Of a stretch of DNA of 53,396 nucleotides, positions 11,495-37,050 are shown piece after piece. Position numbers and translations under genes: made by a program. How positions within the stretch are numbered: the stretch's first letter is position 1; each line of letters begins with the position of its first letter. The notes beneath the pieces are model-generated. The model saw nothing but the letters and a program-made list of their open reading frames with translations. It was not told where the DNA came from and searched no databases. Origin of the DNA: a virus; IMG/VR virus record IMGVR_UViG_3300025072_000006, positions 1 through 53,396 of that record. One strand, 5' to 3'.

Positions 11495-13144
11495 TTAAAG
11501 AGTATTTAATCCAGCTACATAAACTTTACCATAGAACTCAGGTCTTACGATTTTCTTCGCATAACGAGTCATAACCCCTTTTCTAGGAGTGAAGTTTACA
11601 GGATCGTACACTAATGGAGTCATGATAAGTGGAACGTATGGAGAATAAACTGCTCCAGTTTCAAGGAACTGTGCTCCTCTATATCCCATAAGGATTACGT
11701 TTTCTTTCATGTATGGGTTCTTATAAACTGTGTATCTATTATTCATAGCACCAATTTTTTGAACACCAGCGGCAAATTCCATTTTGTCACCATCTGTGTC
11801 AGCAGCAAATCCAGGAATAGATTCAAGGATAGTTGCAACAGCAGGACTAGTAACTAAGAAATTCGCTCCACCTCTAAGTGTCTTTTGGTGAATTTGATTC
11901 GATACTTTTTGAAGTTTAGTACCAAGTGTCTGGAACCATTCTCCTTGAGTATTATAATATCCACCGCCAGTTCCTACAGGTTTGCCAATAAAGCTATTAC
12001 TTGCAGCATCATAGAATTGATTAGACTCTGCTGACCAGAACTCAGTAGTAACTGCGCCATTGATAAGCATATCTAATATTTCAAGATCGATTTCCATCGA
12101 TACATATTCACTTAACATTGAAGTTAATTCAGCTTCAGCGTCAATTGAGTGATAAGCATTCAAATCTTGAGCAAATTCAGGTGTCCAAACAGCCTTTAAC
12201 TTTCTAGTCTTAGCAACGATTGGATCTGATTGCATTTCAAGATTCACTTCAGGAATATCAATATCTGTTCCTTCATTGATACCAAGATTAGTACCAGAAC
12301 CTTTAAATGGATCTGCATCTTCGAAATCACCTCTGGTTATATCTGATGGTTGTCTATTATATGAACAAGTATATCCGCCTGCAGCTAATACTGCGCCAGA
12401 TCCTGTTACAACAAACTCAATGTTTCCACCATTTAATCTAGTAAATGCTGGGAATTGAGTAAATGTTCCTGCTGATCCCGTAGATAATACAAATGATCTA
12501 ACAGCTGTATCATCAAATCTAGCTAGAGATGTAGTTGGAAATGATATTACTTGATATTTAGTTCCAAAAGCTGCAACATCAGTAAATGTACTGTCATAAT
12601 TAACAGATGCAGATGTTGCACTTGCTATAGTAGCAGTATCGCCTTGTAAATGTTCGTTAATAGAATAAGCAAATCTACCAGCGCCATAAAGACCGCCTGA
12701 TGCTTCGCCTGCATCTGAAGTAACACCGAACATCGAGTTATCGGCATTTGGAGAACCAAATTTGTATGCATTAGATGTTCCACCTGTTGTGTCAAATCCA
12801 GGTTGTGCTGTTCCATATTTAAAGTCTAAGTAAAATACTAGACCTGATGGTAGATTCATTGGTTGTACAGAAACGAATTCTTTAGCAGCAAATTCTGCAA
12901 AAATTCTTCTTACCAATGGAAGAGCTACCCCTGCCCATTCTTCTGATCCCTCTGCGGTGCCAGTTCCTGACGATTCTCTTACCAGCTGTCTAGCTTGGTT
13001 TTCAAGAAGCTGCGCCATTCCTGCTCGCTCGGTTTCATTTTTTAGGCCTTCTAGAAGACCTGTTCTTTCCCATTTTGATACTAGCCCTTTGGCTTTGTTT
13101 CTCTGGGAAGGATTATTGTCTTCTAATAATGATGATATATTCAT
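11495..13144 (-). CDS. 23: Major capsid protein gp23
   Basis: A 549-residue protein matching the T4 gp23 family in length and in position directly after the scaffold gene. The N-terminal 60 residues (MNISSLLEDNNPSQ, then LVSKWERTGLLEGL and LLENQARQLV) form the helical pro-region. It is followed by GVALPLVRRIFAEF and VSVQPMNLPSGLVFYLDFKY, typical of the family core. The C-terminal part (TPLVYDPVNFTPRKGVMTRYAKK) is also characteristic. In T4 the pro-region is removed by gp21 after an (L/I)xE site. Candidate sites here are LLE at residues 6-8 and others within the first 65 residues. The ribosome site is GGAAAG seven or so bases from the ATG. Transcription ends at the hairpin 11421-11444. Confidence 0.92.
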   Translation of the reverse strand: MNISSLLEDNNPSQRNKAKGLVSKWERTGLLEGLKNETERAGMAQLLENQARQLVRESSGTGTAEGSEEWAGVALPLVRRIFAEFAAKEFVSVQPMNLPSGLVFYLDFKYGTAQPGFDTTGGTSNAYKFGSPNADNSMFGVTSDAGEASGGLYGAGRFAYSINEHLQGDTATIASATSASVNYDSTFTDVAAFGTKYQVISFPTTSLARFDDTAVRSFVLSTGSAGTFTQFPAFTRLNGGNIEFVVTGSGAVLAAGGYTCSYNRQPSDITRGDFEDADPFKGSGTNLGINEGTDIDIPEVNLEMQSDPIVAKTRKLKAVWTPEFAQDLNAYHSIDAEAELTSMLSEYVSMEIDLEILDMLINGAVTTEFWSAESNQFYDAASNSFIGKPVGTGGGYYNTQGEWFQTLGTKLQKVSNQIHQKTLRGGANFLVTSPAVATILESIPGFAADTDGDKMEFAAGVQKIGAMNNRYTVYKNPYMKENVILMGYRGAQFLETGAVYSPYVPLIMTPLVYDPVNFTPRKGVMTRYAKKIVRPEFYGKVYVAGLNTL

Positions 13145-15769: not shown

Positions 15770-16393
15770 TTATATCCTACATTTTCCATCATCACAAAGT
15801 ATTGAAGTTATAATTTCATGTACTCTGTCATATTTGTTTATTACATTCATTTTATTTGCCGACTCAAACATTGGTTGCATAAATGCTCCTGTAGTCGACG
15901 GATTAGATACAAAGTCCCAACATATTAATTCAAAGTCTTCTTGAACTTCAACTGCTGATTCTTTATATAATTCTTTTACACTTCCTAAACCTCTACTAGA
16001 TATTCCTAATGTTATCCCTGATTTAAATAGTGATTTTAATATATTTCCTGCGGGAGTATCTAATACTTGTACTGCTCCTTTAAGACTATCGCCATCCCAC
16101 CATATTTTTAAAACATTGTGAGATACATTATTTAAATTAACAATTGATGATTCAGGATGATCTAATTCTCCTAATGCTCTATTTTGATCAATATATTCTT
16201 TTTGATATCTTACGCACTCTCTAGCTAAAATATTTTTTGGGTATATTCTTCCATTCTGGTTTTTTGCTCCAGCTCTTTGTAATACCCCTTGAACTACCAT
16301 TCCACCAGGTATGCCGAATTTTGCTCCGTCTGCCTCGGTTAGTGGCGAAAGTGGTTTAAATGGCATATATTCTACTAACAATGATTTAGACAT
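15770..16393 (-). CDS. 21: Prohead core protein protease gp21
   Basis: A 207-residue protein of the T4 gp21 serine protease family. The expected blocks are visible: GVLQRAGAKNQNGRIYPKNI (36-55), ALGELDHPESS with the likely catalytic His79, and LGISSRGLGSV with the likely nucleophile Ser132 or Ser133. WDFVSNPSTTGAFM follows near 173-186. The length matches the family (T4 gp21 about 212 residues). It matures the prohead by cutting scaffold, capsid and internal proteins after (L/I)xE. Its own N-terminus has LVE at 6-8 and LTE at 18-20, possible self-cleavage sites. It lies one base after the preceding gene. Confidence 0.92.
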   Translation of the reverse strand: MSKSLLVEYMPFKPLSPLTEADGAKFGIPGGMVVQGVLQRAGAKNQNGRIYPKNILARECVRYQKEYIDQNRALGELDHPESSIVNLNNVSHNVLKIWWDGDSLKGAVQVLDTPAGNILKSLFKSGITLGISSRGLGSVKELYKESAVEVQEDFELICWDFVSNPSTTGAFMQPMFESANKMNVINKYDRVHEIITSILCDDGKCRI

Positions 16394-17866: not shown

Positions 17867-19687
17867 TTATAAAATATTGTCTTCATCTAACATTGTGCCG
17901 GAATCTACATCTTTATTTTGGTTTTCTGTTATAATCTTTGAACTTCTGGGTCTTAAATGGTTTAAAATATCAGCATTTTCTGTTGCTACAGTTGTTCGTG
18001 TATTTCTAAATCTAGGATCAGGCTGGAATGTGGTTGAAAAGTTTTTAGGATTGGTGCCTTGCTTAATTGTTTTAGCACCAGTCGGATCCCAGCCAAATTC
18101 ATTTTTATGCTGTCCATATTTAATTCCCTCGGGCGGTCTTCCACCTTGATCTTTTTCTTCTACATCGTCAGAACTCATATGAATTGATGCTAAATCGTGT
18201 GGGGTTCCAAATGATGTTCCTGTTAATGTTGGGTCGTTGCCTTCTTGTTCAATTTGGTTTTGTCTGAATCTTAATTTAAGATCTTCAATTACATTATTAC
18301 GTTCTTCAAGCCATTCATCTTCAGACATATTAAAAATATATTCATATATGTATTTATCAGAAACTAATTTAGAATCTTTCATCGATGTTGCTAATGTCAT
18401 TTTTTCAGTCATTAATGCGACTTTTTGTTGATCATAGATAATTGATGGAGGAGTTAAGTCTAATTCAAATCCTATTAAATCATCTCCTTCAAATCCTTGA
18501 GAATATAAATGTACAATTCCAATTTTAACTAATTCTGAAACTACTATTTTTTGAATTCTTTCAATTGTTCTTGCAAATCTAATATCCATTGATGCCAATG
18601 TAGTTTTGCCTTCAACTCCCTCATCATATCCCAGGAATGGTTTAGGAATTTTTAATGCTGCCATCATTTTGTGTTTTACGTATTCAATGTCATCGATGCC
18701 GGTGAACTCCATTCCTGGTAGTGTATCTATTGTTGTTTGACTATTGCCTCCCCGCACAGGTAAGTAGTAATCTTCTAACATGTTATTTAAATTAAATTTA
18801 AGATTATAGTTACCGGTTTGTTTATCAACATATGGAATTTTTTTCATTTTATTAATAATTGTTTCCATAAATGAATCAACTTCATTTGGTGGAATATTGC
18901 CAATATCAATTTTAAAAATACGTTTTTCTGGTGCTCTCATTATTCTGTGAATAAGCATTGCATCTTCTAACATCATTAATTTTTGAAATTCTTGTCTCGC
19001 GCCTTCTAACATAGACCTGCCGTACGGGAGAAAGTTTGAATCTGATAATAGCCTGAAATGTGCTATCTCAAATACATCATATTCTATATGCTCAGTTGCT
19101 GCGTGCCTAAATTTAATATCATATTCGCCCAACGTTTCATCATATTGCTCCAATCTTTCAATTTCATAAGTAGAAAGTGGGCGTGCATTTAAAATTCCTA
19201 TTTCTTCGGCAACATCTAATTTTAAAAAGAAATCTCCATACTTACACATATTACGAATCCATGGCCACATATTGAATTCAATGTTTAATATGTCATAATA
19301 TAAATTGTATAATATTTTTTGTATATGAGTTTTATTTGTTTTAATAGTTAATATATCACCAAATTGATCTGCTAAAGTTGATTCATCGGAGTATATGTCT
19401 AATGCAGATGATATTATTGGATCTTTATCCATCATCTCATAATCGGTATACAATTGCATCCGATTCTGTTGCATGTAGTAATTCGAATCATATCCGCCAT
19501 AACCACCCATATTATGTTTAGTTGTGCCGTGTAATCGATTGTATCTATCCGTTAATTTGCTTTGTGATAAATTCCCCAATGACTGTAATCTGTTAGTATC
19601 GACTACTTTTAGTCGATCCTTTCCATACTTACGTACTACTACATTGGTAGAAAATAAATTCTTTAAACGTTTTCTTAATGATGCCAT
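17867..19687 (-). CDS. 20: Portal vertex protein gp20
   Basis: A 606-residue protein with clear T4 portal-family sequence: DYEMMDKDPIISSALDIYSDE (about 88-108), YGRSMLEGARQEFQKLMMLE (about 222-242), HRIMRAPEKRIFKIDIGNIP (about 247-267), YLPVRGGNSQTTIDTLPG (about 313-330) and KIPKPFLGYDEG followed by KTTLASMDIRFARTIERIQ. It forms the twelve-fold ring through which DNA enters and leaves and nucleates head assembly. T4 gp20 is about 524 residues; the extra length here is mainly a low-complexity, probably flexible C-terminal tail of about 100 residues from GNDPTLTG onward. It lies 30 bases downstream of the terminase gene. Confidence 0.93.
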   Translation of the reverse strand: MASLRKRLKNLFSTNVVVRKYGKDRLKVVDTNRLQSLGNLSQSKLTDRYNRLHGTTKHNMGGYGGYDSNYYMQQNRMQLYTDYEMMDKDPIISSALDIYSDESTLADQFGDILTIKTNKTHIQKILYNLYYDILNIEFNMWPWIRNMCKYGDFFLKLDVAEEIGILNARPLSTYEIERLEQYDETLGEYDIKFRHAATEHIEYDVFEIAHFRLLSDSNFLPYGRSMLEGARQEFQKLMMLEDAMLIHRIMRAPEKRIFKIDIGNIPPNEVDSFMETIINKMKKIPYVDKQTGNYNLKFNLNNMLEDYYLPVRGGNSQTTIDTLPGMEFTGIDDIEYVKHKMMAALKIPKPFLGYDEGVEGKTTLASMDIRFARTIERIQKIVVSELVKIGIVHLYSQGFEGDDLIGFELDLTPPSIIYDQQKVALMTEKMTLATSMKDSKLVSDKYIYEYIFNMSEDEWLEERNNVIEDLKLRFRQNQIEQEGNDPTLTGTSFGTPHDLASIHMSSDDVEEKDQGGRPPEGIKYGQHKNEFGWDPTGAKTIKQGTNPKNFSTTFQPDPRFRNTRTTVATENADILNHLRPRSSKIITENQNKDVDSGTMLDEDNIL

Positions 19688-19717: not shown

Positions 19718-21295
19718 TTACAGAAGCCAGGTTAAATCTTCGTCTTCTGAACCATTATTCCACTTCCAACTATCGTTTTCATTAGAATTATTATTTGTGT
19801 AAATTGTATTATCTGTTTTTCTAAATTGTGATAAAGCTCTTTTATTCAACTCAATTCCGTGTTGTCTTAATTTTAAACTTGTATCTCGTAACCACAAACC
19901 TATTGCATAACTCATTACTAAATCGTCATTGTAGCCAATTTGTGCTTGTGCTTTACCATTAAGCCAAACAAATACAAATAATTCCTGAATGAGTCGTTTT
20001 GATTTAATAATCGGTGTTCCTTCTCTCATATACATTTCTAATGCAGATATCATTAATGGCCTGGTTCTACTTGTGGTTGACACTCCAGGAACCATTTTTG
20101 TTTTATCTTTTATGTCATATCCTTTTTGTAATTGAACTTCTAAATCTACATATCCTTCTGTTTTATATGTGTAAAATAAATTTTCATAGTTTCTATCTAA
20201 TGCTGGTTGTACTGCTGCCCAACCTATATTTGCATTTTCAATTGCTAATAATGCATTATTCCATTCAGTTGCAACTGATACTAACATGTTACCAAAATCC
20301 TTAGGTGGTAGCTTTCCTTTATACTCTGCTACCTGTGTTATAGTTTGAACATCTATTACATGAAATGCAGACCAATCTGATGCATCACCCCGTGCTACAT
20401 CAGCTACGACTATATAATTTTTTGTATAATCTGGGTAGTCCCAGATCCAATATCCATTATCGTACCCTCGTTTTTCAACTGGGTCTTCGCATTTTAATTC
20501 GTATTGTTGCAATATTAATCCATCTACTACAGTGTGTCCTGATGATATAAAATCGCAATCACACTCTTGTGCTGCTCCTCTTTCGCCTAATAGTTTTGTT
20601 TGCTCGAGTCTCCATTCTTGGTCTCGGTCTGGGTGTAAGTCCCAATGAAGTTTTATTGTTTTAAACCCATTTACTCCAGATTCGGCATCACTCCATATTT
20701 GATGAAACCAATTTCCTAATCCATTTGGAGTAGATAATACAATTGCACCACCACCTGTTGATAGTGTAGCCTGGGATGCTATCCATATTTCTTCAATGTT
20801 TCTAATAAATGCGGCTTCATCAACTATTAATAAAGATAACGCTTCTGATCGTGCTCCTGTAGATGCACTTGATATTGCTTTTATTTCCGAACCATTTTTG
20901 AATTTTAATGATAATTTATTGTTTGTAGTTATGACAACTTTTAGCCAACTAGGCAAATTTTCATTCATTATTTGAACTTTGCTTACTAAGTTTTTTGCTA
21001 CATCTTGTGTTGTTGCTATAACTAAAACATTGAATTCTTCATTAAATAACATACACCAAAGTGCATATCCGGCTGTTAATGTTGAAATTCCTAGCTGTCT
21101 AGATTTGAGTATTACATTGTATCGACTGTCTCTTAAATCTGATAGTGTTTCTTCTTGAAAGTCATATAAATCAAATTTGATTTTTCCTTTTAAAGGATGT
21201 TGGATATAACAAAATTGCCTCATAAAGTATACCGGGTCGGTAGCACACTTTACATACTGTTCTTGAATTATTTCTTTTATATTTTTCTGAGCCAT
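19718..21295 (-). CDS. 17: Terminase large subunit gp17
   Basis: A 525-residue DNA-packaging motor. The ATPase half has the Walker A variant KSRQLGIST (64-72), an adenine/coupling region (STGARSEALS) and Walker B LLIVDEAAF with Asp159 and Glu160, then the coupling motif VLSTPNG (187-191). The nuclease half has VVADVARGDASDWSAF (Asp299, Asp304 region), AIENANIG with Glu353, and GYNDDLVMSYAIGLW with Asp457/458, the three acidic positions of the RNase H-like fold. T4 gp17 is 610 residues, so this version is shorter at the N-terminus. It pumps DNA through the portal and cuts concatemers. It starts one base after the upstream stop. Confidence 0.95.
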   Translation of the reverse strand: MAQKNIKEIIQEQYVKCATDPVYFMRQFCYIQHPLKGKIKFDLYDFQEETLSDLRDSRYNVILKSRQLGISTLTAGYALWCMLFNEEFNVLVIATTQDVAKNLVSKVQIMNENLPSWLKVVITTNNKLSLKFKNGSEIKAISSASTGARSEALSLLIVDEAAFIRNIEEIWIASQATLSTGGGAIVLSTPNGLGNWFHQIWSDAESGVNGFKTIKLHWDLHPDRDQEWRLEQTKLLGERGAAQECDCDFISSGHTVVDGLILQQYELKCEDPVEKRGYDNGYWIWDYPDYTKNYIVVADVARGDASDWSAFHVIDVQTITQVAEYKGKLPPKDFGNMLVSVATEWNNALLAIENANIGWAAVQPALDRNYENLFYTYKTEGYVDLEVQLQKGYDIKDKTKMVPGVSTTSRTRPLMISALEMYMREGTPIIKSKRLIQELFVFVWLNGKAQAQIGYNDDLVMSYAIGLWLRDTSLKLRQHGIELNKRALSQFRKTDNTIYTNNNSNENDSWKWNNGSEDEDLTWLL

Positions 21296-21677: not shown

Positions 21678-21994
21678 TTCCGAGTTTTTTTGATTATATT
21701 TTCCTTAGCACCTATAGTTGTTCTTTTTGGTACAATAATATCATCTTTATTCTTTTTTGTTTCTGTTAAGTCTTCTTTTTGTTCTTTAATATCAGCTTTA
21801 ACTTCAGCTTCTTCTTTTTTAATTCGTTCTAATTTTCCTGCTAATTTATCAATTTTTGAATTATTTTTATCAATCTCTTCATCTGTTTTATCTAATTTAT
21901 TTGCAGTTATTTTTCTAGAAATTAGAAATATTACTCCAAATAGTGCAACAATTGCTCCTACAATTATTTTCCAATATTTTTTAATCGTCTTCAT
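21674..21994 (-). CDS. Small membrane protein with coiled coil, possible inner spanin
   Basis: A 106-residue protein. Residues 5-27 form one membrane helix (KYWKIIVGAIVALFGVIFLI), followed by a highly charged heptad-like stretch (DEEIDKNNSKIDKLAGKLER, then KEEAEVKADIKEQKEDLTET) and a basic tail. An N-terminal anchor with a periplasmic coiled coil is the usual layout of an inner-membrane spanin. However, many phage membrane proteins share it. It overlaps both neighbours (14 bases upstream, four downstream), so the three small genes are translated together. Confidence 0.65.
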   Translation of the reverse strand: MKTIKKYWKIIVGAIVALFGVIFLISRKITANKLDKTDEEIDKNNSKIDKLAGKLERIKKEEAEVKADIKEQKEDLTETKKNKDDIIVPKRTTIGAKENIIKKTRK

Positions 21995-22622
21995 TTTCTT
22001 CTTTATTTAAATTTTCTAAAAATTCTTTTTTGAATTCATTAAATTGTTCTTGTACCTTTTCTTCAAACTCGTCTGGAGTCATTTTTGCTGCCCATGTCTC
22101 TGTTAAGCCATCTGCATTAGTAACCAATGTACTAGCTTCAGTATACGCTTTTTTTAACATATTAACATCATCTTCTGCTTTTTTTATCCAAGCAACTGCA
22201 TTATTTTTTATTCTATTTTTTTCATACTCATCATATTTTCCTTCAATGCGCAACTGATGTTCCATTTCGATGACACAGTCAAAACATTTTCCATGATATA
22301 CACGCATCTTGTTGTCTAATCGATTTGGAGTTTTACATGTACATGTATCTTTAGGACAATTTGGAAATGAATTTAAATATTTTTTAATGTCAGCTGAAAT
22401 TGAATTTTTTGGTTTTTTTACACGAAATCCATTTTTTTGTTCAATAACATAAATAGTACCGTTTGCATTTGTTTCTTCCCAAATATCACCAACTTCGTGT
22501 TTTTTATTTAATTCTGCTTTTTGTTTTGCGTCTGTAAATCCATGGGTTTTTTTTGTTTGAAATGCATGATTGCCTTCAAGCATTTGTTTCACTGCTTTTA
22601 TATTTTGTAACTTTTTTGACAT
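21981..22622 (-). CDS. Cysteine-cluster protein upstream of terminase, unknown
   Basis: A 213-residue protein. Residues 40-70 look like a small beta domain (VGDIWEETNANGTIYVIEQ). A five-cysteine cluster follows (Cys89, Cys94, Cys96, then Cys113 and Cys116 in GKCFDCVIEME), consistent with a zinc ribbon. The C-terminal 90 residues are helical and charged (NAVAWIKKAEDDVNMLKKAY, then EEKVQEQFNEFKKEFLENLN). I do not recognise the family. The position immediately before the membrane pair and the terminase suggests a packaging-related or small-terminase-like role, but no helix-turn-helix is seen. The gene starts 10 bases after the previous stop. Confidence 0.6.
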   Translation of the reverse strand: MSKKLQNIKAVKQMLEGNHAFQTKKTHGFTDAKQKAELNKKHEVGDIWEETNANGTIYVIEQKNGFRVKKPKNSISADIKKYLNSFPNCPKDTCTCKTPNRLDNKMRVYHGKCFDCVIEMEHQLRIEGKYDEYEKNRIKNNAVAWIKKAEDDVNMLKKAYTEASTLVTNADGLTETWAAKMTPDEFEEKVQEQFNEFKKEFLENLNKEENEDD

Positions 22623-22632
22623 ATAATCCTTT

Positions 22633-23523
22633 TTATAATTTTGATAGAGCTCGGTCTACTACTCTTTTTAATAAACCAATTTTTCCAATTTTTTGTTTTC
22701 TGTCATCTTCTGCTGTAATTTTTTGTACTACATTCATAATCATTTTTACTTGTTGTACTATATTTGGTTTTTGTTGTACTGCCAATACGAAATTGTTAAT
22801 ACGAGAGTCTCCCTGTTGTCCGTCTCCGTCTGGATCATTTGGGTCTCCCTGTGTTTCTTCACCTTCGGGTGGAGCTTCGGGTGCTGGAGCTTCGGGTGCA
22901 GGAGCTTCGGGTGGAGCTTCGGGTGCTGGAGCTTCGGGTGCAGGTGCTTCGGGTGGAGCTTCGGGTGCAGGTGCTTCGGGTGGAGCTTCGGGTGCAGGTG
23001 CGTCTGCAGGTATTGCTGGTGCTTCTGGTGCAGGGGGTGGTTCGGGTGTATCCGCTAGCGGTTCTTCTTCTGTAGGCTGTTCTACTACTTTTGACAATTC
23101 CGATTCCATTATAAATGATTGAATTTTTTTACGTACTATTTCCCTAACTAATTTTTCTTTTTGTTCTTTAGTTAATTTTTTTATTTTTGACATATAGCCA
23201 CCATCTATTTTTGACATTGTTTCAATATAATCCTTTGCATCTGCTTCTACATTTTTATCAAATGTTTTTAATGCGTGTTTAGCCATCTTAGGATCTCCGT
23301 CTTGCATATCTTTTATTGGATATGCTCTATCAGAATCTTTTACATCATAAACCATATTTTCAGAATCGCCTATATCTGAATATTTAATTTTTCTAGGAAC
23401 ATCTGGTTGTGGTTCGCCTGATGCGTCTAATACCATATTTTCGGTCTCTTTTCCCTCATAATCTTTTAGATCTTTTCTGGGTTTATGTTTTTTATTTTCT
23501 GGTTTTTTATACTTTTTAGCCAT
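22633..23523 (-). CDS. Protein with Pro-Glu-Ala repeat stalk, unknown
   Basis: A 296-residue protein in three parts. Residues 1-150 are charged and lysine-rich (MAKKYKKPENKKHKPRKDLK, then KLTKEQKEKLVREIVRKKIQ) and contain ENMVLD / ENMVYD twice. Residues 150-225 are a repetitive Pro/Ala/Glu linker made of PEAPAPEAP and PPEAPAPEAP units. The last 70 residues (RINNFVLAVQQKPNIVQQVK, then KIGLLKRVVDRALSKL) are helical. IMES near residue 138 fits the (L/I)xE protease rule. The linker resembles periplasm-spanning or extended spacers (TonB-like), but there is no membrane anchor. The function is unknown. Confidence 0.6.
   Translation of the reverse strand: MAKKYKKPENKKHKPRKDLKDYEGKETENMVLDASGEPQPDVPRKIKYSDIGDSENMVYDVKDSDRAYPIKDMQDGDPKMAKHALKTFDKNVEADAKDYIETMSKIDGGYMSKIKKLTKEQKEKLVREIVRKKIQSFIMESELSKVVEQPTEEEPLADTPEPPPAPEAPAIPADAPAPEAPPEAPAPEAPPEAPAPEAPAPEAPPEAPAPEAPAPEAPPEGEETQGDPNDPDGDGQQGDSRINNFVLAVQQKPNIVQQVKMIMNVVQKITAEDDRKQKIGKIGLLKRVVDRALSKL
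22863..23003. repeat. Tandem repeat coding the Pro-Glu-Ala linker
   Basis: Short units built on GGAGCTTCGGGTG and GGTGCAGG variants are repeated in tandem in register with codons. The units are slightly divergent. They are prone to slippage in multiples of three, so linker length may vary between related phages. Confidence 0.8.
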
Positions 23524-23544: not shown

Positions 23545-23552
23545 ATAAATAT
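23545..23552 (-). promoter_or_regulatory. ATATTTAT element before the repeat-stalk gene
   Basis: The sense strand reads ATATTTATATTAAAAATAAGG, 21 bases before the ATG at 23523, touching the stop codon of the three-domain gene. Confidence 0.4.
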
Positions 23553-26389
23553 TATCTAGAATACTTTACAATGTTTAATATCTGATTTATTGGGGCAAAT
23601 GAGCCTGTTAGCTTATAAGTATTGCCTCCATATGTGAATACTAATCCTTCTATAGGAACAATTTTTTCAAATCCTCCAAGTCGTTGAATTTTTTGTAAAT
23701 GAGTTTTCATTAACTCTAATTTTCTTAAATCATTTGTCGATCGTAACTCTCGAATTACAGATGCTAAATCACTTCGTATTTGTTGTGCAGATTCTTTTGG
23801 ATTTGCAGCTAACATACTAGATACGCCTTTTAATACCTCTGCACCTAATTTTAAAAATATAGATTCAAATGGTTCCATATTTTGTTTTTGGTATTGTTTA
23901 AAATCTTTTTGATCAAAATTTACTACCCATTCTGAAAATTCTGGGCTATCGATTTGTTTTATTACATTTGTAATTCGTGGATTTTTAATATTAAATGCCC
24001 ACCTATTTACTAATATGTCTAATACATCATCTGTAATTTCATATCCTAATTCGATTGCTTTATCTCGTATTACATCTCTCCACCATCCTTTATGATATTC
24101 AGCTACTGTGTCTCTATCTTTTAATTCATATTGATTTTTTAATTGATCTACCTCGTTAAATAATGCATCTTGATAATCTTCAAAATCTTCTAATTGTCCA
24201 ACTTTAATTTTATTTGGTGGAATTAAATTAAACGTTTTTTGCATATGAGCATTTGCAGATTCGACTGCTTTTTGTATCACATTTGCGCCTGTCATATCAG
24301 TTTGGATTACATTTCCTTTGTCGTCAAATTCTTGTAAATTATGAAATTGTAATGCTGCAATGTCATATGAAATAACATTTTTAGTATCTGGATATATTAT
24401 TTCCATATTTGCGAATACACGACCGTTTTGGAATATACTTTGTATTGTTTCTGAATTAACTTGTGAAAATGCAGATGATAGGTCATTCCCTGCTTCTTTG
24501 AATGCAGTTGTTAATTCTCCACGACCAGAAAATTTCGTAGCTAATTCTTCAGCAGTTAATGGATTGACCCTTTCTCCTTTATTTCTAGCAAATTTAACTT
24601 GGCCATCTTTAACTGTTACAAATATATTTAGCCCGTCAGTCTTTTCTGTTACAGAAGATTCTATATCTAATCTTCCTTGTAATGCTCTTGCAATCATTTC
24701 TTTCATATCAGCAAATGATAAATCGTGGCGATCATATGGATGGTCCATATGACCTGCGAGGCCACCTTCCGTTAAATGTTTAGTTCCAAATACTGTTTTA
24801 GGAAATTTATTAAAATCATAAACAAATCCTTTATTATCATCTTTATCTAAATATTTTCTTAATTTGCTTATTTTTTGAATGTGTGCTTTAGCTCCTTTTG
24901 GAGTTTCATATCCTTCTGCTAGTTCAACATCAATTTTTATATCTGGATATTTTAATTCTAGGCCATTTACTGCTGCTACATTTTTTGCCGAATCATCTAT
25001 AAAATAAATGTCGTCATACCCTTTTTTTATTTGATCTTCTATCCACCTAGCCTTGTCCATTGGATCAGCTGACCCTAATGCTACGACATAAACATTTTTT
25101 ATTCCATGTTCTTTTTCCAACCAACGCTTAACTGGGTATCCGATTGATCTGGCAGTTAATATAGTTGTCTTTGCTCCCCTATCAGCTTGTGCTTTTTTAA
25201 ATGCTTCAACATTTTGTGTTATTGGAGTTGCTTGTTTTATAATTTTATCAAAATCTCTGAAATCAAAGTCATCTCCTGGCAATGGTTCATATACTGCAAA
25301 ATCTGCAGGCGATAATTCTGAATTTGTTCCGTCACTATGTTTTACATATATAGTAGCATTCATTTTGCCTAATGTATCATCAAAATCAAATACTCTTAAT
25401 CTTTTGCCTGTTCTTAATTCTGTAAACATTTGTTTTGCATCTTCAAGTAATTCATTTACCCACCATTCTTTTGTAAGAACAGGCTCGTGTTTAGCCTCTA
25501 CCCATAACGTAGCTGTTTGAGGAGAACCAATTACTTTTCTAATTTCTTCATTTGAGTCTGATTGAATTACATTGTCTAAGTCGTCATATTTCCAATGGGC
25601 TTGGTTGTCGCCTTTTCTATATCCATATGTGTAATTATCTGGACCATCTTCGACTATATTGTCTGGATGTAAATTTTTATAATTTTCAACAAATTTATTA
25701 TATTCTTGACCTATTAATGGCATCTGTGTAGAAAAATTTTCTTTTGGTTTTATACCTGCACTTTTTTGTACTCTGGCTTCTGCTTCATCGCCAAATTCAT
25801 CTCCAAATGTAGATTCGCCACCCAATAGTTGCCATACATTTTTTACTATGGCATCTGAGTAATTTGGATAGCTGGCTTTAAATTTTGCTAACTCTCCGGA
25901 ATTTATTGTAGATATAGTTGAGTCTGCAGATATAGGTTCTCCGTTTGGATATGTTAATGGATCTACATTTACCATTAATTCTATAGCATCAACTCCTTGT
26001 GGAACTTTATTTCCTTTTTTGTCTGGATTAATTTTATATTTATCAACTGATCCAATAAAGTGTTTTATTCGTACATAGTCTTTATCTTTATTAGCAGCGG
26101 CTAGTGCAAATTTTCCGACAGTGTCTTTTGGCATTGTAAGTAAATAATCAAATGCTGACGATAATGGAGAATTTAATCTAGAATATATTAATTCTATTTT
26201 TTTATTTCTATTTAATAAATTGAATATTTGTTTGGATTGCTCTCTTGTTACTCCGTGTCTTGCTTTTGGTCCAATAAACATTAAAACTTTGTCGACATTA
26301 GGGTTTTGTGCATATCGTTGGGCAAGAGCCATATGAGCTCCTGTGATTGGCTTAAATCCTCCTGGAAATAATACTGTTACTTTATCCAT
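23552..26389 (-). CDS. Three-domain protein: adenylyltransferase-like, HAD phosphatase, ligase-like
   Basis: A 945-residue fusion. Residues 1-190: a nucleotidyltransferase of the NMN/pantetheine-phosphate adenylyltransferase type, with VLFPGGFKPITGAHM (7-20, TGAH in place of HxGH), VDKVLMFIG and an ISADSTISTINSGEL stretch in the place of the family's ISSTxIR motif. Residues 330-490: a HAD phosphatase with RVFDFDDTL (Asp335, Asp337, Thr339), TILTARS (Thr412) and IYFIDDSAKN (Asp465, Asp466), closest in feel to the 3'-phosphatase part of polynucleotide kinase. Residues 540-945: polynucleotide ligase-type motifs, TEKTDGLN (Lys583 as candidate AMP-bearing lysine), FANMEIIYP (Glu663), PIEGLVF (Glu914) and YKLTG (Lys926), with about 250 residues inserted between motifs III and IV. 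A nucleic-acid end-repair or RNA-repair enzyme is likely; the exact substrate is unknown. Confidence 0.75.
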   Translation of the reverse strand: MDKVTVLFPGGFKPITGAHMALAQRYAQNPNVDKVLMFIGPKARHGVTREQSKQIFNLLNRNKKIELIYSRLNSPLSSAFDYLLTMPKDTVGKFALAAANKDKDYVRIKHFIGSVDKYKINPDKKGNKVPQGVDAIELMVNVDPLTYPNGEPISADSTISTINSGELAKFKASYPNYSDAIVKNVWQLLGGESTFGDEFGDEAEARVQKSAGIKPKENFSTQMPLIGQEYNKFVENYKNLHPDNIVEDGPDNYTYGYRKGDNQAHWKYDDLDNVIQSDSNEEIRKVIGSPQTATLWVEAKHEPVLTKEWWVNELLEDAKQMFTELRTGKRLRVFDFDDTLGKMNATIYVKHSDGTNSELSPADFAVYEPLPGDDFDFRDFDKIIKQATPITQNVEAFKKAQADRGAKTTILTARSIGYPVKRWLEKEHGIKNVYVVALGSADPMDKARWIEDQIKKGYDDIYFIDDSAKNVAAVNGLELKYPDIKIDVELAEGYETPKGAKAHIQKISKLRKYLDKDDNKGFVYDFNKFPKTVFGTKHLTEGGLAGHMDHPYDRHDLSFADMKEMIARALQGRLDIESSVTEKTDGLNIFVTVKDGQVKFARNKGERVNPLTAEELATKFSGRGELTTAFKEAGNDLSSAFSQVNSETIQSIFQNGRVFANMEIIYPDTKNVISYDIAALQFHNLQEFDDKGNVIQTDMTGANVIQKAVESANAHMQKTFNLIPPNKIKVGQLEDFEDYQDALFNEVDQLKNQYELKDRDTVAEYHKGWWRDVIRDKAIELGYEITDDVLDILVNRWAFNIKNPRITNVIKQIDSPEFSEWVVNFDQKDFKQYQKQNMEPFESIFLKLGAEVLKGVSSMLAANPKESAQQIRSDLASVIRELRSTNDLRKLELMKTHLQKIQRLGGFEKIVPIEGLVFTYGGNTYKLTGSFAPINQILNIVKYSR

Positions 26390-34621: not shown

Positions 34622-35488
34622 TTAATTTAATTTTTTAATAGATTTTGCTAATGGTTTATCACGTTTCATCCACTTCTTTTTCTTCCTATTGAGGTGTTTA
34701 TAAGGAGCACTGTTATTTTTAGGATGTTCACCTAAATAAAACTTAATAGTATCTGGAGTAAGTCTATTCGAAGAATCTAGAACGAAATAACTTCCAATAG
34801 TACCCGTTGATTGAGGATCATTATTGTAGGATTCTAATTCACCAGATGTTTTCTTTTCACTTTTAGTTACCCAATTCCCACCATCTTTATAATTCCATTC
34901 AATCTTGTATAACCACCCTTTTGAATCTTTTAAATCATTATATAGTTTTATCGCAACATCTCTTTGTGCATCATCTTTTGCTCGTTCTTCAGCAGCAACT
35001 TTATTATAAGCTATTTGCACTTTTAATTTCTCCATCTCTTGTTTAATTTTTTCATCTGCTTTATCTTTAAAGCGAGAATGAATATCACTAATTTTATCAC
35101 TACGGATCAGAGTAGCCTTATTTACTTTTTCACCCTCCCAATATGAGTCTTTATCAGTAATCTCAAACATGTATATGGTAAACAATTGTTTACCAACAAA
35201 AGAAGTTTTACCTTCTTCTTTCCAAACATATAAAATTTTACTATTTTTATTCCAATTAGTTAAATTAGGCGAATTAGATAATATTGTTTTTATATCAGTT
35301 TCATCTAATTGCTTAATAAGTTTATTCTTAATAAAAAGAACATTCAGAAGCATAATATGAGAAGCAACAGCTTTAAAATCTTGTTTTGCTTTTTTCTTTT
35401 TATTAGGATTGTCGATAGTTTTTAACACATACTCATCATTTGGTTCACGAAAAGTATTCTCTAGTAATATTTCTTTAAGTTTAATCAT
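34622..35488 (-). CDS. Unknown protein with capsid-targeting-like N-terminus
   Basis: A 288-residue lysine-rich protein. I place the start at ATG 35488 (MIKLKEILLENTFREPND). An upstream in-frame ATG at 35506 overlaps the previous stop, but its six extra residues are encoded by the ATATTTATATAAA element itself. LLE at residues 8-10 with a preceding short helix resembles T4 capsid-targeting sequences (MKTYQEFIxE type). The middle has a charged helix (DKADEKIKQEMEKLKVQIAY); the C-terminus is very basic (YKHLNRKKKKWMKRDKPLAK), as expected for a DNA-associated protein. No family is recognised. A DNA-bound internal virion protein is a reasonable hypothesis. Confidence 0.6.
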   Translation of the reverse strand: MIKLKEILLENTFREPNDEYVLKTIDNPNKKKKAKQDFKAVASHIMLLNVLFIKNKLIKQLDETDIKTILSNSPNLTNWNKNSKILYVWKEEGKTSFVGKQLFTIYMFEITDKDSYWEGEKVNKATLIRSDKISDIHSRFKDKADEKIKQEMEKLKVQIAYNKVAAEERAKDDAQRDVAIKLYNDLKDSKGWLYKIEWNYKDGGNWVTKSEKKTSGELESYNNDPQSTGTIGSYFVLDSSNRLTPDTIKFYLGEHPKNNSAPYKHLNRKKKKWMKRDKPLAKSIKKLN

Positions 35489-35493
35489 TTTAT

Positions 35494-35501
35494 ATAAATA
35501 T
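35494..35501 (-). promoter_or_regulatory. ATATTTAT element touching the start at 35488
   Basis: Only five bases separate the core from the ATG. If this is a promoter, the mRNA would be nearly leaderless; otherwise translation couples to the upstream gene. Confidence 0.35.
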
Positions 35502-35505
35502 ACCA

Positions 35506-37050
35506 TTACATATCAATATCGATATTAATTAAAAAATTCATATCAACATCATCTCTTTTCTTAATTGCAGCACCCAATTTTCCTATTGCTAATAATTGTC
35601 CTGCATCATTATATAATCCAATTTCTGTTATATATGGATTAAAATTACTACCTGTTGCCCAATTTTGAATAGTCATATCATCATCTTTCAATGTGGTAGG
35701 ATTTTGAGATACATTAAAATCTCCTGCAGCTAATCTAGTTAAAACAGAATGCTCATATAATGTAATTGTACTCTGATAACTTGCAGTATAATTTGCTGTT
35801 AAAATATCATTATACCTATAATCAGGACTAGATATTACTACTAATCCTTGTTTATTAAATACATTCCCAACTCTATTAGTTTGCAACATCCCACCACCCT
35901 CCGTACGGTCCGATAACGACGTTATTTGAGCTTGGGTGAGCGCCTTATTAAAGATTCTAATTTCATCTAGATCTGCGTGTATGTTACCGTTATTGGGGCT
36001 ATAACCACCTATTTTCAAGGGGTCTTGATTGTCGATCCTAGCAGACGCAGTAAATGGAGTATTAAATTCAGATAACAGTAAATTTGACCCAATAGATGCG
36101 TGTAATGTTGCATCAATATACATATGCAATTCGCTTCCTGTCTTTTGGCATAATACGTGTGTCCAGCTACTGCTAACAAACGCAGATGAGGATATTTGGG
36201 CTATATAAGTATTAGACCCAGCTGCAGAAAATAATAATTGATTGCTACCACTTAATTCGATATTGAATGGGTATTGTGGTGTATTTGAAGCAGATATTTT
36301 TCCTAATAATAATTCATTAGTTGTTGCAGACCCACTTGATATAAAGAAAGAAATTGCATAATTATGGTCTCTATCATAATATCCTGGAATAGTAGTTTCT
36401 ATATAACCAGATCCAGAAAAGCTAGCTGCCAATCCGATTGGTAATTGGCTACCATTACTTGTTGTTACTCCATCTATATAAGTAACACCAGAAGCTGTAA
36501 TATATGGAACCCTAGTCAAATCAAAATATTCATTAAATCCTTCATTGAATACCTCGCCTCCAGGAAATGAACCAGTTGAAATAACAATATCGTATATATT
36601 TCCATATCTATCTGATTTTAGATCAACAGTGCCGTCATATATAAACGACTTTGGTTTAATTGCTTCTCCAAATTGTGTTTGTGGTATTGCAAATACAGAT
36701 GCAGATTCATATAAAAACTTCGAAGTGTAATTTAAATTTGTCTGACCATGTGTTTTGCTAGGCTCCGATTTTCTTTTATAAAATAATTGGTCGATAGAAT
36801 AATATGTTGAAAATTGATATGTTCCGTCTACATTAGTAGCAGAATTAAATGTATTGCTACTAGATATTTGGGGCAACGAAGAAACATAAATACCTTGTAA
36901 TGGATTATAACCATCAGCTACAGAACTACCAGAAGTAAATATAAATTGTTTATATGCTTGAAATTTATTAACTTGAAAGTCACCTGGCTCAACTTTTTTG
37001 AATACCTCCGGTGATATTCCTTTATATTCGTCTATGATATTGTTTGACAT
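35506..37050 (-). CDS. Tail structural protein with laminin G-like domain
   Basis: A 514-residue protein. Residues 205-380 form a laminin G / concanavalin-like sandwich: ASFSGSGYIETTIPGYYDRD, YAISFFISSGS, SWTHVLCQKTGSELHMYID and the closing LDEIRIFNKALTQAQITSL, the usual end of this fold. The C-terminal 90 residues (GDFNVSQNPTTL, then PYITEIGLYNDAGQLLAIGKL) match the end of the gene upstream. LamG-like domains commonly bind glycans, so a host-surface contact role is plausible. It belongs to the run of baseplate and fibre genes downstream of gp6. A leader of about 60 bases holds an ATATTTAT element. Confidence 0.7.
   Translation of the reverse strand: MSNNIIDEYKGISPEVFKKVEPGDFQVNKFQAYKQFIFTSGSSVADGYNPLQGIYVSSLPQISSSNTFNSATNVDGTYQFSTYYSIDQLFYKRKSEPSKTHGQTNLNYTSKFLYESASVFAIPQTQFGEAIKPKSFIYDGTVDLKSDRYGNIYDIVISTGSFPGGEVFNEGFNEYFDLTRVPYITASGVTYIDGVTTSNGSQLPIGLAASFSGSGYIETTIPGYYDRDHNYAISFFISSGSATTNELLLGKISASNTPQYPFNIELSGSNQLLFSAAGSNTYIAQISSSAFVSSSWTHVLCQKTGSELHMYIDATLHASIGSNLLLSEFNTPFTASARIDNQDPLKIGGYSPNNGNIHADLDEIRIFNKALTQAQITSLSDRTEGGGMLQTNRVGNVFNKQGLVVISSPDYRYNDILTANYTASYQSTITLYEHSVLTRLAAGDFNVSQNPTTLKDDDMTIQNWATGSNFNPYITEIGLYNDAGQLLAIGKLGAAIKKRDDVDMNFLINIDIDM

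What the first reader, a model, noticed from the sequence alone, without database searches (positions are those of the whole stretch)
23552..26389. Three enzymes in one chain: adenylyltransferase-like, HAD phosphatase and ligase-like
Motifs of three separate families occur in order: PGGFKPITGAH, DFDDT with TAR and IDDS, and TEKTDG with EGLVF and YKLTG. Known T4 RNA repair uses separate Pnkp and Rnl1 enzymes against host anticodon nucleases. Phages also carry NMN adenylyltransferases to rebuild NAD after defence systems destroy it. A single protein with end-healing phosphatase, sealing ligase and a dinucleotide-forming domain could join both jobs, or make its own ligase cofactor. The 250-residue insertion between ligase motifs III and IV is also unusual. 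The combination may be an undescribed repair or anti-defence enzyme.
Basis: partly seen in the sequence, partly recalled or inferred. Interest (0 to 1): 0.82.

Follow-up and report, generated by a model that had tools for sequence, protein, structure and literature searches.

The report
Phage RNA-repair polyprotein, probably virion-packaged
A T4-like marine phage encodes three enzyme modules in one chain (a nucleotide-transfer fold, a phosphatase and an RNA-ligase-like enzyme), and cut-site patterns in over 50 relatives suggest the chain is packed into the virus head, cut apart there and injected, so RNA repair could start before the phage makes any protein.

Summary
Observation confirmed: one 945-aa ORF holds a HIGH-superfamily nucleotidyltransferase fold (1-192), a Pnkp-like HAD phosphatase (321-492) and a KxDG ligase-like domain (542-945) with a conserved helical insertion between motifs III and IV. 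AlphaFold2 plus fold searches support each; the ligase domain's best matches are RNA ligases. No Pfam, PHROG or NCBIfam model covers it.

The gene sits in a T4-type head-assembly cluster, and the ligase is preceded by [LI]-x-E|GG in 53 of 57 non-redundant relatives, although the flanking linker is unconserved. That is the cleavage motif of T4's prohead protease. Such sites are four-fold enriched in linkers over shuffles and rare inside domains. Members lacking the site carry instead an in-frame ATG with a Shine-Dalgarno at the same residue (6/6). Stand-alone relatives carry T4-like capsid-targeting leaders; a cyanophage nucleotidyltransferase with such a leader was found in virions.

Best reading: a polyprotein packaged in the head, cut by the prohead protease and injected to repair RNA. 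Packaging, cleavage and activity are inferred, not measured. The nucleotidyltransferase has lost two catalytic residues, so making its own cofactor or NAD is not supported.

The parts
23552..26389 (-). Polyprotein gene, 945 aa: nucleotidyltransferase - linker/MID - HAD phosphatase - linker - ligase-like
25814..26389 (-). HIGH-superfamily nucleotidyltransferase fold, residues 1-192; TGAH replaces HxGH and the ISSTxxR arginine is Ser in this clade
   Evidence: VIA-align Z 12.7 to PPAT, about 11 to NadD, 10.8-10.9 to NadM-type; profile hits to adenylyltransferases; alignment A2
25430..25813 (-). Variable linker and MID segment, residues 193-320, with KEWW linker motif (307-310) and candidate sites IVE|D (245-247), LLE|D (314-316); FTE|L (322-324) lies just inside the HAD module
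   Evidence: pLDDT <50 for most of it; absent or replaced in relatives; KEWW recurs at two different junctions; site list
24914..25429 (-). HAD phosphatase module, residues 321-492 (D335, D337, T412, D465, D466)
   Evidence: phrog_415 polynucleotide kinase E 6.4e-9; Z 11.0 to T4 Pnkp 3'-phosphatase 5uj0; invariant motifs
24914..24922 (-). Predicted prohead-protease site LAE|G, residues 490-492
   Evidence: post-HAD site in 3 of 3 dereplicated HAD-bearing members
24767..24913 (-). Linker, residues 493-541, ending in the predicted site LTE|G (539-541)
   Evidence: pLDDT <50 at 493-500 and 519-546
24767..24775 (-). Predicted prohead-protease site LTE|GG directly before the ligase
   Evidence: [LI]xE in 53/57 dereplicated relatives, upstream columns unconserved; 31/31 complete NTase+ligase members
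23555..24766 (-). Ligase-like nucleotidyltransferase domain, residues 542-945 (K583, R602, E663, E914, K926)
   Evidence: AF2 pLDDT 92.8; RNA ligases fill the top of the structure hits; invariant motifs
23663..24181 (-). Helical insertion between ligase motifs III and IV, about residues 737-909
   Evidence: secondary structure of the model; alignment A5
21981..22622 (-). Conserved neighbour (213 aa, unknown), downstream of the polyprotein in most loci
   Evidence: synteny
22633..23523 (-). 296-aa proline-rich neighbour, conserved in the nearer relatives
   Evidence: synteny
19718..21295 (-). Terminase large subunit (gp17-like)
   Evidence: Pfam Terminase_6N 2.2e-14
17867..19687 (-). Portal protein (gp20-like)
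   Evidence: Pfam Portal_T4 2.7e-66
15770..16393 (-). Prohead protease (gp21-like), the proposed processing enzyme; its own N-terminus reads PLTE|AD
   Evidence: Pfam Peptidase_S77 1.2e-30; relatives keep [LIVM]xE there
11495..13144 (-). Major capsid protein (gp23-like), putative site LVRE|SS
   Evidence: Pfam Gp23 2.6e-75; 57% identity to Flavobacterium phage immuto

Best explanation
The gene makes a polyprotein of the phage head. It is translated late with the head genes, enters the prohead as cargo, and is cut by the phage's gp21-type prohead protease after [LI]-x-E at the module boundaries, freeing the nucleotidyltransferase, the HAD phosphatase and the ligase. The freed enzymes are injected with the DNA. 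There the phosphatase heals 3' ends and the ligase seals RNA (most plausibly tRNA cut by host anticodon nucleases), before any phage protein has been made. Shown here: the three folds, the invariant ligase and phosphatase motifs, the head-gene synteny, the conservation and enrichment of the protease motif, its replacement by an internal start in one clade, and T4-like leaders on stand-alone relatives. Inferred: packaging, cleavage, injection, RNA as substrate, defence as purpose. The role of the nucleotidyltransferase fold is open; in this clade it may be catalytically weak.
For: Ligase fold: top PDB matches are RNA ligases (Trl1, archaeal Rnl, T4 Rnl1, Rnl2), Z up to 9.9 to Naegleria RNA ligase spanning model residues 3-398. 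HAD: T4 Pnkp phosphatase Z 11.0, phrog_415. Synteny with gp17-gp20-gp21 on the same strand in most loci long enough. Cleavage motif: position -3 is L/I in 57/57 and -1 is E in 53/57, while -25 to -5 are unconserved; linker sites 119 against 29.7 from shuffled linkers, 2.23% of linker positions against 0.32% in domains. The unrelated HAD module shows it too: 22/29 forms with upstream sequence against 7.6 expected. Cognate protease and capsid N-termini carry the same kind of motif; T4 specificity L/I-x-E is from PMC9026906. Members without the site have ATG plus Shine-Dalgarno at the same residue, 6/6 against 7/88. T4-IPIII-like leaders: MITFSQFLLE|GG, MKSLIQYISE on a stand-alone ligase among 11 such leaders in one 13-kb locus; T4 IPIII is MKTYQEFIAE|A. 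Cyanophage S-SM1 nucleotidyltransferase starts MKKFSAFLNE|A and its cluster T4-GC190 was found in virions (PMC3037559). Partner modules elsewhere include a P-loop kinase with weak polynucleotide-kinase similarity and a Pol-beta-palm domain.
Against: No proteomics for this phage or any close relative. The window protein itself has no N-terminal targeting leader (it starts MDKVTVLFPGG), so how it would enter the prohead is unknown. The pre-HAD site here is FTE|L, not a strict match. Some matches to the motif also lie inside domains. The ligase family has K-x-T, not K-x-K, in motif V, so sealing activity is not assured. The cyanophage virion protein is related only at the superfamily level: profile comparison was not significant. 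Sequences are related to each other, so counts are not independent events.
Confidence: 0.57

Rival explanations
1. It is one uncut multifunctional RNA-repair enzyme that works in the cytoplasm late in infection.
For: Single open frame in all HAD-bearing ligase members; T4 repair enzymes are made after infection (established knowledge).
Against: Late head operon; HAD cassette absent from most relatives; protease motif at boundaries and low-confidence linkers; members without the motif have an internal start instead.
Confidence: 0.17
2. The chain is packaged and cut as proposed, but the ligase-like domain is not a nucleic-acid ligase; it transfers AMP to another acceptor (protein or small molecule) to reprogramme the host, like other injected modifying enzymes.
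For: Motif V is KLTG, not KxK, and the 170-residue helical insertion is unlike known ligases; sister polyproteins carry unrelated cargo such as a Zn_protease-family domain.
Against: Closest folds are RNA ligases as a group; co-encoded phosphatase and, elsewhere, P-loop kinase fit end healing.
Confidence: 0.15
3. [LI]xE|GG is a structural element at the start of the ligase fold and not a protease site; the protein is an ordinary late-gene enzyme.
For: GG..GHM.HP just after it is invariant and belongs to the domain.
Against: The site is outside the confident fold (pLDDT <50 at residues 1-4 of the domain model and 519-546 of the full model); only P3 and P1 are conserved upstream; the same motif precedes the unrelated HAD domain and follows the nucleotidyltransferase.
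Confidence: 0.11

Closest known systems
T4 RNA repair pair Pnkp and Rnl1 (and Rnl2)
   Same: HAD 3'-phosphatase fold close to T4 Pnkp; ligase core aligns with Rnl1 and Rnl2
   Different: No kinase domain here; one chain with variable cassettes; motif III-IV helical insertion; motif V KxT; encoded in the head operon, apparently packaged, whereas T4 makes its pair after infection
T4 internal proteins IPI-III and Alt (capsid-targeted, gp21-cut, injected)
   Same: Same cleavage motif, head-gene context, leader resemblance in relatives
   Different: Multi-enzyme chain cut at several sites; RNA-repair-like cargo; the window protein has no N-terminal leader
Polyvalent proteins of phages (PMC5512222)
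   Same: Multi-domain, swappable, near virion genes, proposed injected
   Different: That survey proposes release by embedded metallopeptidases; here the separate prohead protease is the likely cutter. The survey says its 2H domains were never seen associating with RNA ligases, and in the passages read I found no RNA-ligase module reported
Cyanophage core cytidylyltransferase T4-GC190 beside T4-GC71
   Same: Nucleotidyltransferase next to a KxDG ligase-like protein; the former has a leader and is found in virions; fused in S-PM2 (591 aa)
   Different: Very divergent (12% identity by fold match), no HAD module, located outside the gp17-gp23 cluster in S-SM1
Clostridial Pnkp (kinase-phosphatase-ligase)
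   Same: End-healing and ligase modules in one chain
   Different: Phosphatase there is of the metallophosphoesterase type (from memory); ligase fold match is weak (Z 5.7)

Membership tests
ATP-dependent RNA ligase superfamily | Motif I K-x-D-G lysine, motif Ia arginine, III Glu, IV Glu, first lysine of motif V | tested here: met
   K583, D585, G586, R602, E663, E914, K926 invariant in 49 sequences
ATP-dependent RNA ligase superfamily | Second basic residue of motif V (KxK) | tested here: not met
   Family reads K-x-T-G, invariant
ATP-dependent RNA ligase superfamily | Nucleotidyltransferase fold of RNA ligases | tested here: met
   Z 9.9 to NgrRnl, 8.9 to T4 Rnl1, 8.3 to Rnl2; cellular DNA ligases lower at 5.7-6.0
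ATP-dependent RNA ligase superfamily | RNA sealing activity | not testable with these tools
   needs enzyme assay
Pnkp-type HAD 3'-phosphatase | DxD(x)T nucleophile motif, motif II Thr, Lys, acidic motif IV | tested here: met
   invariant in alignment A3
Pnkp-type HAD 3'-phosphatase | Nearest fold is Pnkp rather than another HAD | tested here: inconclusive
   Z 11.0 to T4 Pnkp phosphatase and 11.2 to another HAD-containing protein; MDP-1 and Lem4 also near
Pnkp-type HAD 3'-phosphatase | Attached 5'-kinase domain | tested here: not met
   no P-loop kinase match in this ORF
NMN adenylyltransferase (HIGH superfamily) | Fold | tested here: met
   PPAT, NadD and NadM all at Z 10.8-12.7, so substrate class is not resolved
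NMN adenylyltransferase (HIGH superfamily) | HxGH and ISSTxxR catalytic motifs | tested here: not met
   TGAH and ISADSTIS in the window
T4-type prohead-protease substrate / capsid cargo | L/I-x-E cleavage motif at domain boundaries | tested here: met
T4-type prohead-protease substrate / capsid cargo | N-terminal capsid-targeting leader | tested here: not met
   absent from the window protein; leader-like N-termini in divergent relatives
T4-type prohead-protease substrate / capsid cargo | Presence in the virion in cleaved form | not testable with these tools
   no proteome of this phage; superfamily relative found in virions
Phage polyvalent protein | Several unrelated domains, shuffled, near virion genes | tested here: met
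Phage polyvalent protein | Embedded processing peptidase | tested here: not met
   none in the window ORF by Pfam or PHROG; other members have peptidase-like modules

The most novel reading that the evidence does not exclude
A large, undescribed family of phage proteins is a ready-made RNA-repair kit carried inside the head: a polyprotein cut by the prohead protease into phosphatase, ligase and nucleotidyltransferase, injected with the genome so that tRNAs cut by host anticodon nucleases are mended before phage translation starts. One clade replaced the cleavage site by an internal ribosome start at the same residue.
Probability: 0.42. Interest if true: 0.86.

Novelty: new variant of a known kind. 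Interest (0 to 1): 0.74.

Why it matters
Known phage RNA-repair enzymes are made after infection, which is a weakness if the host cuts tRNAs first. A pre-packaged kit would solve this and predicts that repair precedes translation. It would also show that the T4-type prohead protease releases injected enzymes from polyproteins, beyond trimming propeptides, with a simple sequence rule that lets cargo be read straight from genomes.

Tried and rejected
Pfam, PHROG and NCBIfam scans give no ligase hit for the window protein; Pfam's DUF4309 hit (E 0.047) is chance. A sequence search of the PDB with the ligase profile found only chance-level hits, including P1 DarA at E 0.017, which the fold search did not list. 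A PDB sequence search with the HAD profile gave only chance hits. I considered a cofactor-making role for the nucleotidyltransferase and set it aside because catalytic residues are lost in this clade. Profile comparison failed to link the ligase to the S-PM2 protein or the nucleotidyltransferase to the S-SM1 protein; the S-PM2 link rests on a fold match. tblastn of two HAD proteins with leader sequence found no isolate phage. The larger set of ATG-type members (38) was found with a pattern containing the Shine-Dalgarno, so only the 6/6 is used as evidence. The active-site distances asked for could not be measured, as model coordinates are not returned. A first attempt at the HAD alignment failed on coordinates.

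Full report
The observation. The window is a 53-kb virus record. The phage is a T4-like myovirus: terminase, portal, Peptidase_S77 prohead protease and Gp23 are recognised by Pfam, and its capsid protein is closest to Flavobacterium phage immuto, 57% identical.

The three folds. A PHROG polynucleotide-kinase profile matches residues 320-477 (E 6.4e-9). Otherwise standard libraries see little of this protein. AlphaFold2 on a 67-row alignment gave confident domains separated by low-confidence stretches. With this model, residues 1-194 match phosphopantetheine, nicotinate and NMN adenylyltransferases (Z 10.8-12.7), and residues 327-494 match the T4 Pnkp 3'-phosphatase (Z 11.0) and other HAD proteins. 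The ligase domain modelled alone (pLDDT 92.8) matches tRNA ligase Trl1, archaeal RNA ligase, T4 Rnl1 and Rnl2 by Foldseek and Naegleria RNA ligase at Z 9.9 by VIA-align, with cellular DNA ligases lower. The residues of motifs I, Ia, III, IV and V are invariant in 49 dereplicated sequences, save that motif V reads K-x-T and not K-x-K. The long spacing between motifs III and IV is a helical insertion shared by the family.

Family and modularity. Most near relatives are nucleotidyltransferase plus ligase without the HAD module; others have the HAD, and the segment between varies in length and content. More distant members carry other cargo: a P-loop kinase with Zeta-toxin and weak polynucleotide-kinase similarity (L099), a Zn_protease domain (L079), and in HAD-bearing sister proteins a DNA polymerase beta palm (L023). 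The ligase is usually last in the chain. Database annotation calls such proteins cytidylyltransferase-like.

Place in the genome. In most loci long enough to tell, the polyprotein is followed on the same strand by a conserved 213-aa protein, gp17, gp20 and gp21. This is the head-assembly cluster, including the prohead protease.

The protease signature. T4's prohead protease cuts after L/I-x-E and removes capsid-targeting propeptides from internal proteins (PMC9026906). In 57 dereplicated ligases the residue at -3 is L or I in all and the residue at -1 is E in 53, while columns -25 to -5 are unconserved; the background rate of the motif is 1.7%. In 31 complete nucleotidyltransferase-ligase members, all have a site before the ligase and 22 have one just after the nucleotidyltransferase; linkers hold 119 sites against 29.7 expected from shuffled linkers, and domains hold few. 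The unrelated HAD domain shows the same arrangement: 22 of 29 forms with upstream sequence have a site within 14 residues, against 7.6 expected, and 10 forms have no upstream sequence at all. The gp21 homologues and capsid proteins of these phages carry the same kind of motif near their N-termini. In the model the two strict sites, E492 and E541, lie in or at the edge of low-confidence stretches.

A natural replacement. Six distinct members lack the glutamate and have methionine at that position. All six have an AGGAG or GGGAG 9-10 nt upstream, against 7 of 88 with a similar element among those with glutamate (Fisher p 2e-6, not corrected for relatedness). The Shine-Dalgarno falls in a different reading frame in L088 than in the others. 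So the N-terminus at GG seems to be freed either by a protease or by internal translation. The clade is common: 91 stretches in IMG/VR carry one exact form of the sequence.

Leaders. T4 IPIII begins MKTYQEFIAE|A. Stand-alone or divergent relatives begin MITFSQFLLE|GG and MKFLKSYEEFLNENLILE|GG (ligase) and MKSLVQYILE (HAD). One rumen contig has 11 genes with such leaders, the ligase among them, just before a protease-like gene and a capsid-like gene; in all other loci except that one, its sister L190 and T4 itself, the pattern occurs once in 3477 ORFs. The window protein lacks such a leader, and how it would be targeted is open.

Experimental link in the literature. Cyanophage S-SM1 has a KxDG protein (T4-GC71) beside a nucleotidyltransferase (T4-GC190) that begins MKKFSAFLNE|A. 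T4-GC190 was detected in purified S-SM1 virions (PMC3037559), and similar proteins were found in the virions of S-CREM2 and S-SCSM1, whose authors suggest that they are carried by the virion, while noting that contamination is possible (PMC10665884, PMC9602691). In S-PM2 the two are fused, and the fused protein matches the ligase model by fold (E 2.9e-6, 12% identity). Sequence profiles do not confirm the relation, so this is support by analogy and superfamily, not by orthology.

Interpretation. I think it most likely that this is a packaged polyprotein cut in the prohead and injected, and that the phosphatase and ligase repair RNA. Host anticodon nucleases stop translation; an enzyme made after infection may come too late, so carrying it in the head would make sense. 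That last step is inference. The main rivals are an uncut cytoplasmic enzyme and a packaged but non-ligase adenylyltransferase.

Novelty. Each element has a precedent: injected internal proteins, polyvalent proteins, T4 RNA repair, virion cytidylyltransferases. I found no report, in the papers that could be searched, of an RNA-ligase module in an injected phage polyprotein or of the prohead protease as its separator. The open library is incomplete, so this is not proof of priority.

Noticed in passing
L191 (ONIZ01000001.1 74502-87683), 143-7571: Rumen contig labelled Firmicutes but phage-like: 11 genes share a T4-IPIII-like leader (MKSIREYINE, MKDIKQYITE and so on), suggesting a large set of packaged proteins readable by a simple N-terminal pattern.
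   Followed up: partly
L088, L095, L098, L101, L186, L189 and 91 IMG/VR stretches: In-frame ATG with Shine-Dalgarno replaces the protease site at the ligase boundary inside one open reading frame.
   Followed up: partly
L184 2132-4855 (Flavobacterium phage immuto gp088, annotated NadR): A sister polyprotein at the equivalent place: it resembles L023 with a polymerase-beta-like segment, HIGH nucleotidyltransferase and a peptidase-like segment (HEMIHH), no ligase; boundaries again read xE|G (VKE|GSS, MAE|GRYD).
   Followed up: partly
Linkers of many members, e.g. window residues 305-324: A recurring linker motif [LF][ST]KEWW...L.ED precedes different modules, directly before the ligase in L085 and L089; possibly an internal targeting element.
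   Followed up: partly
window 34622-35506: Unknown protein with a leader-like internal start MIKLKEILLE|NTF, a candidate further packaged protein.
   Followed up: no
window 21981-22622: Conserved 213-aa protein next to the polyprotein in most loci; no family match of note.
   Followed up: no
L079 residues 554-780: Segment matching phrog_36119 (unknown function, E 1e-43) with a TGS..SDVDLH nucleotidyltransferase-like motif, inside a ligase polyprotein.
   Followed up: no
L194 23486-25261 (S-PM2d138) and cyanophage neighbours: The cyanophage T4-GC71/T4-GC190 pair may be a divergent ligase-like plus nucleotidyltransferase system; annotated hypothetical and cytitidyltransferase in hundreds of records.
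   Followed up: partly
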